Shown here: positions 3,157 through 28,068 of the stretch, piece after piece
Position numbering within the stretch: the first letter of the stretch is position 1
How the letters are laid out: each line of letters starts with the position of its first letter
Source of the DNA: a virus
Virus record (IMG/VR): IMGVR_UViG_3300032224_000167
Location: 1 to 33,264 of that record
Length of the DNA: 33,264 nt
Reading direction: 5' to 3' (one strand)
Program-made: the position numbers and the translations under genes
Notes under the pieces: model-generated
Told to the model about the DNA's origin: nothing
Databases searched by the model: none
What the model saw: the letters and a program-made list of their open reading frames with translations, nothing else

Positions 3157-5370
3157 ATGTCCAACGAAGCCGCCGTTACGTCAACGACTAACATTGTTCC
3201 TGTACAGGGCATTTTCCAACCAGCCCCAACATTTGACCTGATTTCATTGATTGGGCCTGCGGGTACGCCGTTTTATGCGTCAATTTCGCCTAATCAATCA
3301 GGTTTGCACATCACAAACAGCACAATTGATAGCACCACAATTGGGGCAACAAGCCCATCCACAGCGGCTTTCACTTCAGGCACGGTGGCGGCAACCCCAA
3401 CAGCGGCAACTGATATTGCCAACAAACAATATGTGGACTATTACGCCGCAGGATTAAGCTGGAAAGCACCCGTGACCGTAGCATCTACGGCAAATATCAC
3501 CAGTTTGTCAGGTTTGCAAACAATTGACACGATTACATTGGTGGCTGGTGATACTGTTTTGGTAAAAAACCAATCAACAGCGGCAAACAATGGCATTTAT
3601 GTGGTTTCGTCAGGCGCATGGTCAAGAAGCCCCGGCGCGGATGTGTGGACAGAATTCCTTGGCGCAATTACTTTTGTGCTCGAAGGTTCACAGGCTGGGT
3701 CGGCTTGGTACTGTACGGCGCAGCCCGGTGGCACTTTAGGCACAACCGCCATCAATTGGTCTAATTTCTCTGTTTCTTCCACCTACACCGCAGGCACTGG
3801 CTTGACGTTGGCGGGGACTCAATTCAGCATCACAAATACCGCTGTCACTGCTGCGGCTTATGGTTCAGCAACCCAAGTTGGCACATTCACAGTCAACGCC
3901 CAAGGTCAATTAACTTTGGCGGGAAACACCACTATTACCCCCGCTGTCGGGTCAATTACTGGTTTAGCTACTGGTGTAGCCACTTGGCTTGCAACGCCAA
4001 CTAGCGCCAATTTGTTGGCGGCGGTAAGTGATGAAACAGGGACTGGATCATTGGTATTTGCCACATCACCGACTTTGGTAACCCCTATTTTGGGAACACC
4101 CCAATCTGGTAATTTTTCCACTGGCACATTCACTTGGCCTACTTTCAACCAAAACACATCAGGAAATGCGGCTACGGCTACATTGGCAACAACAGCAACT
4201 AATCTTGCGGGTGGTGCGGCTGGGTCTGTTCCATATCAAAGCGCAGCGGGTACAACCGCAATGCTTGGAATTGGTTCAAATGGGCAAGTTTTAACTTTAG
4301 CCGCAGGCGTTCCATCTTGGGCTACACCAACAACTGGAACTGTCACTTCTGTTGGGCAAAGTTTTACAGGAGGTTTGATTTCTGTTACTGGTTCTCCTGT
4401 AACTTCATCTGGCACTTTGGCTTTAACTGTGGCTGGAACATCAGGTGGCATTCCATATTTTTCAAGCGCATCGACATGGGCTTCATCAGGCGCTTTGACG
4501 CAATATGGTGTTGTTTATGGTGGTGGCGCGGCTGGCGCACCAGTAGCAACTGCCGCAGGAACAACTGGTCAAATTTTGATTGGCAACACTAGCGCCGCGC
4601 CATCATGGGCGGCTTTGTCTAGTTCTGCTGTAACCAGCATTACATTTGGAACAACTGGTTTAACCCCATCCACAGCCACACAAGGCGCAGTTACCGTTGC
4701 TGGCACTTTGGTAGTTGGCAACGGCGGCACTGGTGTTGCGACTTTAACTGGATTGGCTTATGGAAACGGCACAAGTGCATTCACAGCGGCAACCGCAGCG
4801 CAAGTAGTTTCTGTTATTGGGTCAACTGCTGTAACCAACGCAACAAATGCAACAAATGCAACAAACACAGCAATCACTGACGATACGACCACCGCAAGTG
4901 CTGTTTACCCCACATGGGTGACAACAACCACAGGAAATTTGCCGCAAAAAACGTCATCTACCAAGTTTTCATTTATTCCGTCAACTGGATATTTGACTGT
5001 TACAGGATTAACAAGCCCAATCATCAACAATCCAACAGTTACAAACTATGTTGAAAGCGTGGTTGCAATTGGTACGGTTACAACCACAAACACCTTATCT
5101 TTGACCAATGGCACAGTTCAAACTGCCACATTGACAGCATCAACTGCTTGCACATTCACAATGCCAACTGCTACGGCTGGCAAATCTTTTGTGTTGCTGC
5201 TTAAACAAGCTGCCGCCACAGGAAATGGAACGGCAACATTTACTTCTGTGAAATGGTCAAGTGCTGGCACACCAACAGTTACAGCAACAGCAGGGAAAAT
5301 GGATATTTTTACTTTTGTTGCTGATGGCACAAATTGGTATGGTTCTGTTGCACAAGGATACACACCTTAA
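3157..5370 (+). CDS. Tail fibre protein
   Basis: A 737-aa fibre, very rich in Thr, Ala, Ser and Gly. Residues about 105-205 form a recognisable phage fibre segment: GLSWKAPVTVASTANIT, then LVAGDTVLVKNQSTAANNGIY and a WYCT ending. The shaft (210-640) is made of degenerate repeats of the type GSVPYQSAAGTTAML / GQVLTLAAGVPSWA, seen in phage fibres. Residues 560-571 are a (TNA)4 micro-repeat. The C-terminus ends in an aromatic tip, FTFVADGTNWYGS. It probably recognises the host surface together with the glycine-rich protein, whose start codon overlaps its stop (TAATG). Confidence 0.8.
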   Translation: MSNEAAVTSTTNIVPVQGIFQPAPTFDLISLIGPAGTPFYASISPNQSGLHITNSTIDSTTIGATSPSTAAFTSGTVAATPTAATDIANKQYVDYYAAGLSWKAPVTVASTANITSLSGLQTIDTITLVAGDTVLVKNQSTAANNGIYVVSSGAWSRSPGADVWTEFLGAITFVLEGSQAGSAWYCTAQPGGTLGTTAINWSNFSVSSTYTAGTGLTLAGTQFSITNTAVTAAAYGSATQVGTFTVNAQGQLTLAGNTTITPAVGSITGLATGVATWLATPTSANLLAAVSDETGTGSLVFATSPTLVTPILGTPQSGNFSTGTFTWPTFNQNTSGNAATATLATTATNLAGGAAGSVPYQSAAGTTAMLGIGSNGQVLTLAAGVPSWATPTTGTVTSVGQSFTGGLISVTGSPVTSSGTLALTVAGTSGGIPYFSSASTWASSGALTQYGVVYGGGAAGAPVATAAGTTGQILIGNTSAAPSWAALSSSAVTSITFGTTGLTPSTATQGAVTVAGTLVVGNGGTGVATLTGLAYGNGTSAFTAATAAQVVSVIGSTAVTNATNATNATNTAITDDTTTASAVYPTWVTTTTGNLPQKTSSTKFSFIPSTGYLTVTGLTSPIINNPTVTNYVESVVAIGTVTTTNTLSLTNGTVQTATLTASTACTFTMPTATAGKSFVLLLKQAAATGNGTATFTSVKWSSAGTPTVTATAGKMDIFTFVADGTNWYGSVAQGYTP
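4834..4869 (+). repeat. Four tandem 9-bp units in fibre gene
   Basis: Four 9-bp units (ACCAACGCA, ACAAATGCA, ACAAATGCA, ACAAACACA) encode a Thr-Asn-Ala repeat in the fibre shaft. Copy number could change by slippage in steps of three residues without losing frame. Confidence 0.8.
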
Positions 5371-23535: not shown

Positions 23536-23784
23536 ATGAACCAAAATCATTTATTTGAAAATTTGGATGAATCGTTTCGGGATGAATGGAAAAATATGCC
23601 CGAATATGTGCAAGAAGATTTAACTCCATATCGGGTCATCAATGTGCGATTTAGGAATGCGGAAGATGTGGCATTGTTTGAAAAGTTGATGAAACAAAAA
23701 ATTACTGAAAAGCAAAAAACAATTTGGTTTCCATTTGCTGAACCGCGCAGGGCATCACTTTTTAGGTATGTCGATGAATCCTAA
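23536..23784 (+). CDS. Small conserved protein paired with the glycosyltransferase
   Basis: An 82-aa protein: WKNMPEYVQEDLTPYRVINV, then RFRNAEDVALFEKLMKQKIT, EKQKTIWFPFAEPRR and YVDES. I recall this type (WxxMPE, a strand pattern around V-R-F, IWFP near the end) from phages, often beside DNA-modification or ParB-like genes. Here it overlaps the start of the TAGT gene by 11 nt, suggesting joint function. Mechanism unknown. Confidence 0.6.
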   Translation: MNQNHLFENLDESFRDEWKNMPEYVQEDLTPYRVINVRFRNAEDVALFEKLMKQKITEKQKTIWFPFAEPRRASLFRYVDES

Positions 23785-24643
23785 TTATCCAATTTACATT
23801 GTTTCAAAAGGTCGATGGGATTCAAGATTGACAAGCAAGGCGCTGGAAAAAATAAATGTGCCATACAAAATAATTGTAGAAGCGCAAGAAAAAGATTTGT
23901 ATGAATCAGTGATTGATAAAAGCAACGTTTTGATTTTGCCGCAAAAATTTTTGGATGAATATGAAACTTGTGATGGTTTGGGGGGCGAGAAGTCAAAGGG
24001 CCCGGGGGCGGCGCGAAACTTTGCATGGGAACATTCCATCGGCAGCGGCGCAGCCCGTCACTGGGTCATGGATGACAACATTGCATCATTCAACCGTTTG
24101 AATCGCAATCTGATGTGCAAAGTTGAATCAGGCACAATTTTTAAAGCATCTGAAGATTTTGTAGACCGTTATGAAAATGTTGCAATTGCTGGATTCAACT
24201 ATGATTTTTTTGCAAAAGCAAAAGAACAAATCCCGCCATTTGTTTTGAACACGCGAATTTATTCTTTGCTGCTTATAAAAAATGATTTGCCCTACCGTTG
24301 GCGAGGACGTTACAACGAAGATACCGATTTGAGCCTGCGTGTTTTAAAGTCTGGAATGTGTACAGTGCAATTCAATGCGTTTTTGCAAGAAAAGGCAACA
24401 ACACAAACTATCAAAGGCGGCAACACCGATGATTTTTATTCCAAAGAGGGAACGCTGCCAAAGTCACAAATGCTTGCTGACTTGCATCCAGATGTTGCCA
24501 AGGTTGTTTGGCGATTTAATCGTTGGCATCATCATGTTGATTACAGGTCATTCAAAAAAAACAAACTGAATCGAAAAAGCGGCATTGAAATACCAGATGT
24601 AATAAACAATTTTGGAATGAAACTTGTGGAGAAAAATAATTGA
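23774..24643 (+). CDS. TAGT-family glycosyltransferase
   Basis: A 289-aa protein matching the TET-associated glycosyltransferase group: YIVSKGRWDSRL at residues 8-19, IIVEAQEKDLYE, ARNFAWEHS (80-88), HWVMDDNIASF (96-106) with the DDN typical of nucleotide-sugar/metal binding in GT-A folds, and NEDTDLSLR (181-189) as the base-region acidic motif. Family members are thought to glycosylate hydroxymethylated bases in phage DNA. AGG lies 7 nt before the ATG at 23774; ATG 23768 has no proper spacing. No TET/JBP, hydroxymethylase or methylase gene is found in this complete genome, so the substrate is open. Confidence 0.8.
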   Translation: MNPNYPIYIVSKGRWDSRLTSKALEKINVPYKIIVEAQEKDLYESVIDKSNVLILPQKFLDEYETCDGLGGEKSKGPGAARNFAWEHSIGSGAARHWVMDDNIASFNRLNRNLMCKVESGTIFKASEDFVDRYENVAIAGFNYDFFAKAKEQIPPFVLNTRIYSLLLIKNDLPYRWRGRYNEDTDLSLRVLKSGMCTVQFNAFLQEKATTQTIKGGNTDDFYSKEGTLPKSQMLADLHPDVAKVVWRFNRWHHHVDYRSFKKNKLNRKSGIEIPDVINNFGMKLVEKNN

Positions 24644-25196: not shown

Positions 25197-25522
25197 AACC
25201 AGAAGAAGCTACACAAGCCATCAGGGACAAAGCGCCGCTATATGGTGACGCAAAGGGACAGCGGGTTTACCTTGAGGAATTCCGCAAATCCAAGAAAGCC
25301 ATGCTGATGCGTGATGCCCTGCTGAACGGGATTGATGCCGCCAGCCACCAAGAACGCGAAGCATATTCAAGCCCTGAGTATCAGAAACTGATTCAAGGGT
25401 TAGCCGCAGCGGTGGAAAAAGAAGAAACTTTGCGATGGGAATTGGAAAGCTACCGCCTTGAAGTTGAAATTTGGCGCACCAAAGAAGCCACCAATAGGAT
25501 GCAAGACAGGTCACACCAATGA
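25193..25522 (+). CDS. Conserved phage protein near nucleases
   Basis: A 109-aa helical protein: RVYLEEFRKSKKAMLMRDAL, SPEYQKLIQGLAAAVEKEET, and LRWELESYRLEVEIWRTKEA before TNRMQ. I recall this pattern (F-x-K-S-K-K-A, later W..R..A....W) from phages of Burkholderiales, with no known function. The C-terminal half should be a long amphipathic helix. ATGA overlaps on both sides couple it to the VRR-NUC and zinc-ribbon genes. Confidence 0.6.
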   Translation: MKPEEATQAIRDKAPLYGDAKGQRVYLEEFRKSKKAMLMRDALLNGIDAASHQEREAYSSPEYQKLIQGLAAAVEKEETLRWELESYRLEVEIWRTKEATNRMQDRSHQ

Positions 25523-25704
25523 AATGCCCAGAATGCGGCACATGGACAATCGTCAAAGAAACCCGAATAAGCACAGGTAACAGCCGCCGCCGCAGGCTGG
25601 AATGCGCCAATCAACACAGATTTTCAACTTTGGAGACAATAATTGTTTCAAAAACATCAGTACATCAGAAGCAAAAAGTTGCTGAAATTGGTCGCGGGTC
25701 TTGA
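25519..25704 (+). CDS. NrdR-like zinc-ribbon protein
   Basis: A 61-aa protein with the zinc-ribbon arrangement of the NrdR N-terminus: CPECGTWTIVKETR, then NSRRRRLECANQHRFSTLE. C3 and C6 form the first knuckle; the second has C29 and H33 in place of the usual two cysteines. The full ATP-cone domain of NrdR is missing, so it is a stand-alone nucleic-acid-binding ribbon. The ATG overlaps the preceding stop. The last 62 nt overlap the HNH gene in another frame. Confidence 0.65.
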   Translation: MKCPECGTWTIVKETRISTGNSRRRRLECANQHRFSTLETIIVSKTSVHQKQKVAEIGRGS

Positions 25705-26386: not shown

Positions 26387-26599
26387 ATGGCACAACTGAT
26401 GAAAAGAGAACCCGCTGGTTACGGCGTATCAGCCACAATGAAAGGCAATGCCTCTGCTTCTGACAGCACAGGTACACAAGGAAGCGCCAAAAAAGGCATT
26501 CCTAACGCCCAGACCAACATGACGGGCGCTGATAAGGCGTTTGACGGTGGTCGTTCTAAAGGCGTTTGCTATACCCACGACCGCAAATCTAGTCAGTAA
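26387..26599 (+). CDS. Small polar protein upstream of zeta-like kinase
   Basis: A 70-aa protein, probably mostly disordered, rich in Gly, Ser, Thr and Lys (REPAGYGVSATMKGNASASD, PNAQTNMTGADKAFDGGRSK, GVCYTHDRKSSQ). AAGGAAAAATC lies in front of the ATG. Its stop overlaps the start of the zeta-like gene (TAATGG), the position where antitoxins sit in epsilon-zeta operons, but it has no resemblance to epsilon. Other phages carry similar small proteins near structural genes. Confidence 0.55.
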   Translation: MAQLMKREPAGYGVSATMKGNASASDSTGTQGSAKKGIPNAQTNMTGADKAFDGGRSKGVCYTHDRKSSQ

Positions 26600-27495
26600 T
26601 GGCTGTCCCGCTGTCCAGCATGATGGCAGCGGCACAACCAGCACAAAGCCCTGATCAAGTTAGGGCGGCGGCGCTTGTCCCGCAAGCCCAGCCTCAATCG
26701 CAAGACCCGATTGAGCAGGAATACTTTGACCGCCTGCAAAATGATTATTTGAAGCTGCGGCAGGAATATGCTGCAATTAAAGAATCTGGCGGCGGCAAAA
26801 TCCTGAACACTGACATTGCGCGGGAATTGTCCCCGCACTATTTGGCAGACCGCACTAAATCTGCAAATGTGCATGAACCGTCCAGCCAGTTCATCAAACG
26901 GGTTTACGCTGAAAAACTGTCAAATCCAACCCCCAAAGGCATGGACAACACCGTTGTTTTTACCGCTGGCGGCACGGGCGCAGGCAAAACCACCGCCTTG
27001 GAAGCAGTCAAAAACATTTCTGATTCAGTCAAACGGGCTGAAATGGTGTACGACACCAACATGAACAAATTTGAGACTTCCGACAAGAAAATCCAGCAGG
27101 CATTGAAAGGAAACCGTAAGGTTTCAATCATCTACACCTACCGCGATCCTGTGGAAGCCTTGGAAAACGGCGCACTGAAACGTGCCAATAGGCAAGAAAA
27201 AGAACACGGCACAGGCAGAACTGTACCAATTGGTGAACATTTAAAAACGCATATTGGCGCATTAAATACCATCCATGAATTACAGGAAAAGTACAAAAAT
27301 AATCCCAAAGTCAAGATTCAAGTCATAGATAACTCTCGCGGTGCTGGCAAATCTGCTGTAAGTTCGCTTGACAAGCTGCCTAAATTAAACGAAAATGAAG
27401 TTCAAAGGAGGTTATATGACACGCTTGACCGCGCCCGCAGAAGCGGCGCTATTTCGGAAAACACCTACCGAGGTTTTGCCGTTAACTCCCGCTGA
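26599..27495 (+). CDS. Zeta-toxin-like P-loop kinase
   Basis: A 298-aa protein. A helical, Gln-rich N-terminus (about 1-65) precedes ILNTDIARELSPHYLADRTK (68-87) and a zeta-type kinase domain: Walker A GGTGAGKT (124-131), EMVYDTNMNKFE, then VSIIYTYRDPVEALENGALK and VIDNSRGAGKS. Zeta kinases phosphorylate UDP-GlcNAc or related small molecules, but phage homologues of this TDIARELSP type have no proven substrate. It lies among late and virion genes, so it might be packaged and ejected. A small ORF with a very strong Shine-Dalgarno overlaps its 3' end. Confidence 0.75.
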   Translation: MAVPLSSMMAAAQPAQSPDQVRAAALVPQAQPQSQDPIEQEYFDRLQNDYLKLRQEYAAIKESGGGKILNTDIARELSPHYLADRTKSANVHEPSSQFIKRVYAEKLSNPTPKGMDNTVVFTAGGTGAGKTTALEAVKNISDSVKRAEMVYDTNMNKFETSDKKIQQALKGNRKVSIIYTYRDPVEALENGALKRANRQEKEHGTGRTVPIGEHLKTHIGALNTIHELQEKYKNNPKVKIQVIDNSRGAGKSAVSSLDKLPKLNENEVQRRLYDTLDRARRSGAISENTYRGFAVNSR

Positions 27496-27613: not shown

Positions 27614-27830
27614 TTGCGGTAACTGTAAATTCTTTCTGGATGCCCAGATCATGGGTAGTTGCCGCCGTTATCCACAAACAATCAACAGGCACATGAACGA
27701 TTGGTGCGGGGAACACGCAGCCATTGAACCAGTGATGGTTAGTTTGCCTGTTTACGATATTTTGACTGACACTGTTGCCGAGCCTAAAAAGCGCGGAAGA
27801 AAGCCGAAAAATGATCCAGCCATTGCATGA
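27585..27830 (+). CDS. Cysteine-rich protein with AT-hook-like tail
   Basis: An 81-aa protein with CGNCKFF (C11, C14), GSCRRYP (C26) and DWCGEH (C41) that could bind zinc or an iron-sulphur cluster, and a tail KKRGRKPKN resembling an AT-hook. Start is uncertain: the ATG at 27585 overlaps the previous gene by 29 nt, and a GTG at 27603 just before the Cys domain is also possible. Many environmental phages carry such a four-Cys protein next to a GroES-like gene. The end overlaps the GroES-like gene by 20 nt. Confidence 0.6.
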   Translation: MQDTQFVAHNCGNCKFFLDAQIMGSCRRYPQTINRHMNDWCGEHAAIEPVMVSLPVYDILTDTVAEPKKRGRKPKNDPAIA

Positions 27831-28068
27831 TCGCGTAGTTGTTCGCCCGAATGTTCGCAAGTTGTCTGACATTATTTATGTCAACAACAAGGAATCATTT
27901 AACGAGGGGACAGTGGTCGCGGTTGGCCCTAAAGCAAATCAGATTCAAGTCGGCGATTTCATCAAGTATGGCAATGGTGATTATTTAAATTGGCCTATCC
28001 ACCACATTGACGGGCAGGATTACCAGATCATTCAAGAAGCCGACATTTGCGCGGTGGTGGAGGAATAA
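27811..28068 (+). CDS. GroES-like co-chaperonin
   Basis: An 85-aa protein with the GroES fold pattern: IQPLHDRVVVRPN at the start, the region of the mobile loop (KLSDIIYVNNKESFN), EGTVVAVGPKANQIQVGDFI, KYGNGDY and a final EADICAVVEE. It resembles phage co-chaperonins such as T4 gp31, which replace GroES so that host GroEL can fold the coat. It lacks the typical GG-I-x-L mobile-loop signature, having DIIYV instead. I use the ATG at 27811 because it is the natural start of the family. No GroEL gene is present. Confidence 0.8.
   Translation: MIQPLHDRVVVRPNVRKLSDIIYVNNKESFNEGTVVAVGPKANQIQVGDFIKYGNGDYLNWPIHHIDGQDYQIIQEADICAVVEE

What the first reader, a model, noticed from the sequence alone, without database searches (positions are those of the whole stretch)
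23536..24643. TAGT glycosyltransferase without any base-oxidising or hydroxymethylating partner
TAGT enzymes are known from gene neighbourhoods with TET/JBP dioxygenases, where a sugar is put on an oxidised methyl-pyrimidine. This complete genome has neither dioxygenase, dCMP/dUMP hydroxymethylase nor methylase. The enzyme is instead locked (11-nt overlap) to a conserved 82-aa protein. Either the phage uses a base made by the host or by an unrecognised enzyme (the 82-aa protein is the first suspect), or this TAGT acts on another acceptor such as a virion protein or nucleotide. It may be a minimal anti-restriction modification pair.
Basis: partly seen in the sequence, partly recalled or inferred. 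Interest (0 to 1): 0.78.

Follow-up and report, generated by a model that had tools for sequence, protein, structure and literature searches.

The report
Two-gene phage sugar-transferase with targeting domain
A small bacterial virus carries a sugar-attaching enzyme of a family known to decorate viral DNA, but none of the recognised enzymes that make the base to be decorated; its small neighbour gene is not a hidden base-maker but a detached piece of the same enzyme, so the whole family probably attaches sugar to something that needs no such preparation, which can now be tested on cultured relatives.

Summary
The window is a complete P22-like podophage genome (123-bp terminal repeat) with a genuine TAGT (PF20691, E=3.6e-43) overlapping an 82-aa ORF (P82) by 11 nt. 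No TET/JBP, TS-type hydroxymethylase or DNA methylase was found among the scanned ORFs. The interpretation needs correcting. (1) Solitary TAGTs are already published (288 of 753 phage genomes), and T6 TAGT works without TET. (2) P82 is not a base-making enzyme. P82 was found with 90 of 91 non-redundant TAGTs of this clade fetched with TAGT queries; the exception is a contig end. It occurs alone, fused to the N-terminus of TAGT (e.g. Aeromonas phage Aeh1), or as the C-terminal domain of a ParB_N protein. A fused relative folds as one confident unit (pLDDT 93, pTM 0.91); P82 alone does not. So P82 and TAGT are most likely one split glycosyltransferase. (3) Across about 80 records of the clade there is no TET, and a hydroxymethylase only in Tenacibaculum phage PTm1; positive controls rang. 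Best reading: a self-sufficient, probably DNA-directed glycosylation module whose acceptor is unknown. Protein or small-molecule acceptors are not excluded.

The parts
23536..23784 (+). P82: 82-aa accessory domain gene (motif W..MPEY.QED...VRFRNAEDV..F..L..Q.ITEKQKTIWFP...RYVDES)
   Evidence: profiles; detected with 136/137 non-redundant clade TAGTs; no Pfam/PHROG/PDB relative
23774..24643 (+). TAGT glycosyltransferase, GT-A fold by homology (289 aa from ATG 23774; alternative starts ATG 23768, TTG 23735)
   Evidence: PF20691 E=3.6e-43; 371 relatives in IMG/VR
23774..23784 (+). 11-nt overlap of P82 end and TAGT start, consistent with translational coupling
   Evidence: the commonest P82-TAGT distance, 58 of the non-redundant relatives
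23587..23601 (+). P82 motif W18..M21-P22, invariant in the 37-sequence alignment
23725..23733 (+). P82 motif W64-x-P66, invariant in the 37-sequence alignment
24071..24079 (+). TAGT D100-D101-N102, DXD-like metal/nucleotide-sugar motif
   Evidence: invariant in the 42 TAGT rows of A2; DD also in T6, TET-linked and ParB-linked TAGTs
24317..24322 (+). TAGT E182-D183, probable catalytic-base motif
   Evidence: invariant in clade; ED conserved in T6, P12024L, jlb1

Best explanation
P82 and TAGT together are one glycosyltransferase whose small accessory domain is encoded as a separate, overlapping gene (relatives encode it as one polypeptide). TAGT (GT-A fold, DDN and ED motifs) takes a sugar from a nucleotide-sugar supplied by the host; P82 completes or aims the enzyme. 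The likeliest target is the phage's own DNA, before packaging, with a protective (anti-restriction/anti-nuclease) effect, and the acceptor position needs no phage-encoded TET, hydroxymethylase or C5-methylase. Shown: identity of TAGT, co-inheritance and fusions of P82, absence of known partners across the clade. Inferred: that P82 targets the enzyme, that DNA is the acceptor, and the protective role. Unknown: the sugar and the acceptor atom.
For: TAGT identity and conserved motifs. P82 found in 90/91 TAGT-queried non-redundant loci; the exception is a contig end. P82-TAGT fusion in cultured phages Aeh1, phiAS5, 65, POP12, Kuja (two tandem copies), PTm1, Vibrio 1.076 and 1.124. The fused form folds as one unit, pLDDT 93 / pTM 0.91, while P82 alone gives pTM 0.43. 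P82 is C-terminal to a ParB_N domain in at least 26/137 (Pfam on five examples, four above the curated cut-off; counts), and the distant TAGT of Lactobacillus phage jlb1 also overlaps a ParB_N gene: a link to DNA. An N6/N4 DNA methylase lies between P82 and TAGT in L313. Position before terminase in many relatives. The family's characterised member and its TET-operon members act on DNA (T6: PMC13216743; P12024L operon TET-TAGT-methyltransferase). No TET in about 79 records, no HMase in about 71 small records, C5-methylase in 1 of 46 (controls P12024L and T4/T6 gp42 rang).
Against: No activity data. ParB_N and DNA-methylase links occur only in part of the clade and not in this window. The best solved structural neighbour is a protein hydroxylysine galactosyltransferase (COLGALT1, E about 1e-5, partial match). 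In Vibrio phage 1.076 the gene lies between portal and head-morphogenesis genes. Some cassettes carry second glycosyltransferases, an FkbM methyltransferase, or KdsA/KdsB-like and cytidylyltransferase genes, which fit building a larger glycan on any acceptor. P82 has no known fold, so its targeting role is inferred.
Confidence: 0.5

Rival explanations
1. The P82-TAGT enzyme glycosylates a protein (virion protein or host target) rather than DNA.
For: Best PDB fold match is collagen hydroxylysine galactosyltransferase COLGALT1; in Vibrio phage 1.076 the fused gene lies between portal and head-morphogenesis genes; extra GTs and an FkbM methyltransferase in some cassettes could build a glycan on protein; no base-making enzyme is encoded.
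Against: The fold match is partial (TM 0.34) and GT-A folds are shared by enzymes of all acceptor types; ParB_N fusion, an N6/N4 DNA methylase in a cassette and terminase adjacency point to DNA; the characterised TAGT of T6 acts on DNA (PMC13216743).
Confidence: 0.2
2. TAGT acts on an oxidised or modified base made by the host or by an enzyme of the phage not recognised here.
For: Many window ORFs have no Pfam hit. PTm1 of the same clade encodes a hydroxymethylase homologue.
Against: No single third gene is conserved with the pair across the clade, so a dedicated unknown partner would have to differ between phages; known makers are absent in about 70-80 records with controls ringing; P82 is not a candidate.
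Confidence: 0.15
3. The enzyme glycosylates a nucleotide, RNA or a small defence signal, acting as an anti-defence enzyme.
For: Solitary, mobile cassette in unrelated phages, which suggests an acceptor present in every host.
Against: No precedent in the TAGT family; ParB_N and DNA-methylase links favour DNA.
Confidence: 0.1
4. The module is a decaying remnant of a TET- or hmC-dependent pathway.
For: The pathway's first steps are missing.
Against: Strong third-position bias in both genes, invariant active-site residues, wide distribution and repeated fusion/fission; the clade as a whole lacks the partners.
Confidence: 0.03

Closest known systems
Phage T6 beta-glucosyl-HMC-alpha-glucosyltransferase (TAGT, PF20691)
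   Same: Same Pfam family (T6 E=1.4e-10), DD and ED motifs conserved, phage-encoded.
   Different: Only 18.6% identical over 236 positions; T6 TAGT has no P82 domain and works on glucosyl-hmC made by gp42 and alpha-GT, which this phage lacks.
TET-operon TAGT (Nonlabens phage P12024L: TET/JBP - TAGT - methyltransferase)
   Same: Same family, DD and ED motifs, compact operon in a small phage.
   Different: 23.2% identity; has TET (E=2.8e-29) and methyltransferase next door, no P82.
Aeromonas phage Aeh1 fused glycosyltransferase (NP_943971; listed as presumptive DNA modifier with unknown base in PMC8056088, after Iyer et al. 2013)
   Same: Same clade (about 60% identity of TAGT), same P82 domain, no hydroxymethylase (only td), no TET.
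   Different: P82 and TAGT are one 399-aa polypeptide and the phage is a T4-like myovirus.
Solitary TAGTs reported in 288 of 753 phage genomes (PMC13216743)
   Same: TAGT without alpha-GT or beta-GT.
   Different: The full text as searched mentions no P82-like domain; the P82/ParB_N architecture and the TET/HMase tests are additions made here.

Membership tests
TAGT family (PF20691) | Profile match above curated cut-off over the full domain | tested here: met
   148.3 bits against cut-off 27.5, profile 1-204 of 205
TAGT family (PF20691) | GT-A fold with DD(x) and ED active-site motifs | tested here: met
   invariant DDN and ED; confident model of a relative, GT-A structural neighbours; active-site geometry itself not measured
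TET/JBP-TAGT base hypermodification system | TET/JBP dioxygenase encoded with TAGT | tested here: not met
   no PF12851 in scanned window ORFs; 0 of about 79 clade records, control P12024L rings
TET/JBP-TAGT base hypermodification system | C5-cytosine methylase supplying the substrate | tested here: not met
   none in scanned window ORFs; 1 of 46 clade records
T-even type hmC glucosylation | dCMP hydroxymethylase (TS-like) encoded | tested here: not met
   none in scanned window ORFs; none in about 71 small clade records (one short TS fragment), T4/T6 gp42 control rings; PTm1 is an exception
DNA glycosyltransferase | Transfers sugar to DNA | not testable with these tools
   needs nucleoside LC-MS or an in vitro assay
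P82-TAGT clade (defined here) | P82 domain upstream in cis or fused | tested here: met
   HMM 114 bits in window; 136/137 relatives

The most novel reading that the evidence does not exclude
The P82-TAGT holoenzyme glycosylates unmodified DNA directly (a canonical base, without prior hydroxylation or hydroxymethylation), with P82, free or on a ParB_N protein, as the DNA-targeting part: a one-step DNA hypermodification system spread across unrelated phages.
Probability: 0.2. Interest if true: 0.9.

Novelty: new variant of a known kind. Interest (0 to 1): 0.62.

Why it matters
Solitary TAGTs have been noted but left without a partner, an architecture or a model. Showing that one large clade almost always carries the same small domain, in three architectures (free, fused to TAGT, fused to ParB_N), and lacks the known makers of the acceptor base, turns an odd annotation into a testable enzyme family. 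Cultured phages (Aeh1, 65, POP12, Kuja, PTm1) carry it, so one round of nucleoside mass spectrometry could reveal either a DNA modification that needs no pre-modified base or a TAGT that has moved to a new acceptor.

Tried and rejected
P82 as a base-modifying enzyme: rejected on size, absence of a known catalytic domain, and near-obligate TAGT or ParB_N linkage. P82 relation to known folds: PDB profile search gave only chance-level hits, Foldseek of the weak stand-alone model gave nothing. The second TS-like hit in Aeh1 was a false positive inside gene 47. A first TET search had no ringing control and was repeated with P12024L as control. T6, P12024L and jlb1 loci contain no P82. No match of the fused protein in plasmids. 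The 890-aa top BFVD hit A0A6G6XN95, which aligns to the whole fused protein, could not be identified. An attempt to use Mycobacterium phage Cooper as control failed (record not held). Burke et al. 2021 and Iyer et al. 2013 were not in the library.

Full report
What is there. The window is a complete phage genome: the first and last 123 bases are identical. Pfam places it with P22-like podophages (portal PF16510 E=4.8e-178, coat PF11651, Terminase_3), with ERF and YqaJ recombination genes on the minus strand. The finding covers two ORFs on the plus strand: P82 (23536-23784, 82 aa) and TAGT (ATG 23774-24643, 289 aa), overlapping by 11 nt. TAGT matches PF20691 at E=3.6e-43 over the whole domain and PHROG 842, named beta-glucosyl-HMC-alpha-glucosyltransferase. 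P82 matches nothing significant in Pfam or PHROGs. Both genes change mainly at third codon positions against relative L002. None of about 50 ORFs scanned encodes a recognised TET/JBP, TS-type hydroxymethylase or DNA methylase.

P82 belongs to the TAGT. A search of viral contigs with TAGT gave 371 relatives, and all 118 loci fetched with the TAGT and P82 queries have P82 just upstream of TAGT. In cultured phages the gene is longer: 399 aa in Aeh1, 384 aa in POP12, 452 and 446 aa for two tandem copies in Kuja, 471 aa in PTm1, and the extra N-terminal part carries the P82 motifs. With an HMM of P82, 136 of 137 TAGTs non-redundant at 90% identity have the domain: 85 as a free neighbour, 16 fused to TAGT, 26 as the C-terminal domain of a ParB-like protein (22 adjacent, 4 with a gene between), 9 free with a gene between. 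Among the 91 fetched with TAGT or fused-protein queries it is 90 of 91, the exception being a contig that ends about 110 bases upstream. The ParB assignment was checked with Pfam on five examples: PF02195 E=1.3e-8 to 2e-4, four of the five above the curated cut-off. The per-locus ParB counts rest on an HMM made here, and two further loci (L211, L231) that one search lists as free carry ParB_N-P82, so 26 is a lower bound.

Structure. AlphaFold2 on a fused relative (L127, 391 aa, 58-row alignment) gave pLDDT 93.0 and pTM 0.91, with most of the P82 part above 90. Window P82 alone gave pLDDT 78, pTM 0.43, one long helix and no strands. So the domain appears to need TAGT to fold. Sequence searches of the PDB found no relative. 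Foldseek of the fused model found GT-A enzymes, best the collagen galactosyltransferase COLGALT1 at E about 1e-5 with a partial match, and many viral TAGTs. In 42 clade TAGTs D100-D101-N102 and E182-D183 are invariant, and the DD and ED pairs are kept in T6, P12024L and jlb1 TAGTs.

Partners are missing in the clade, not only here. TET/JBP (PF12851) was absent from all clade records searched (49, a partly overlapping set; about 79 distinct), while the control P12024L, which has the classical TET - TAGT - methyltransferase operon, rang at 2.8e-29. TS-type enzymes (PF00303) were absent from 41 contig records and then from 30 of 31 more; the remaining hit is a 56-position fragment. T4 and T6 gp42 rang as controls. 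Of the large cultured phages, Aeh1, 65, henriette and POP12 have only thymidylate synthase by annotation, while PTm1 has an additional pyrimidine hydroxymethylase; Kuja has one gene annotated thyA, whose exact activity is not established. C5-methylase (PF00145) occurs in 1 of 46. Many contigs may be fragments, so absence is statistical.

Position in the family. The clade members compared are about 54% or more identical to the window TAGT, while T6 (18.6%), P12024L (23.2%) and jlb1 (25.5%) lie far outside; fused forms are scattered in the tree, which suggests repeated fusion or fission, though internal support is modest.

What the cassettes say. No third gene is conserved across the clade, which argues that the pair is sufficient or uses host functions. 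Where genes are added they are of three kinds: methyltransferases (an N6/N4 DNA methylase in L313 and a Methyltransf_11 enzyme in L290; FkbM in L258; an unclassified protein with an NPPY motif in L293), further glycosyltransferases (GT32-type in L191; GT4-like by eye in L342, no Pfam hit; a second divergent TAGT-like ORF in L321), and sugar-activation enzymes (DAHP_synth_1/KdsA-like plus CTP_transf_3/KdsB-like in L293; cytidylyltransferase in L198, with look-alikes in L322 and near L172). Downstream of TAGT a terminase-small-subunit-like gene is frequent (23 of 137). The distant jlb1 TAGT lies between a ParB_N gene (11-nt overlap) and the terminase small subunit.

Mechanism. The best-supported model is one split glycosyltransferase that uses host nucleotide-sugar. 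DNA as acceptor rests on family precedent (T6, PMC13216743; TET operons), ParB_N-P82 fusions, a DNA methylase inside a cassette, and terminase proximity; it is inference. Protein glycosylation remains the main rival (COLGALT1-like fold neighbour, location between portal and head-morphogenesis genes in Vibrio 1.076).

Known versus new. Solitary TAGTs are published (288 of 753 phage genomes, PMC13216743). Aeh1's enzyme was listed as a presumptive DNA modifier with unknown base (PMC8056088 citing Iyer et al. 2013). I found no description of the P82 domain, its ParB_N and TAGT fusions or its near-obligate linkage in the papers searched, but the library is partial and Iyer et al. 2013 could not be read.

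Noticed in passing
window 27775-28068 (+): A GroES-like co-chaperonin (Cpn10, E=1.4e-10) is encoded in a 33-kb podophage with no GroEL seen.
   Followed up: no
window 26599-27495 (+): Zeta-toxin-fold P-loop protein (PF06414 E=9.7e-14) without an obvious antitoxin identified.
   Followed up: no
L293:4758-6168: KdsA-like (DAHP_synth_1) and KdsB-like (CTP_transf_3) genes just downstream of a P82 - NPPY protein - TAGT cassette in marine phage contigs: possible phage-made CMP-Kdo or similar donor.
   Followed up: partly
L321:3215-3964 and 3961-4860: A second, divergent TAGT-like ORF lies between P82 and TAGT; Kuja (L125) also has two tandem fused TAGTs.
   Followed up: no
L121:4620-5813: Vibrio phage henriette 12B8 carries P82 and TAGT in different frames with no annotated gene there; looks like a fused gene broken or split by a frameshift.
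   Followed up: partly
L191:1572-2225: GT32-type DXD glycosyltransferase inserted between ParB_N-P82 and TAGT (PF04488 E=1.5e-11).
   Followed up: partly
window 25519-25704 (+): 61-aa NrdR-type zinc-ribbon protein (PF22811 E=4.4e-8) overlapping an HNH/DUF968-like ORF.
   Followed up: no
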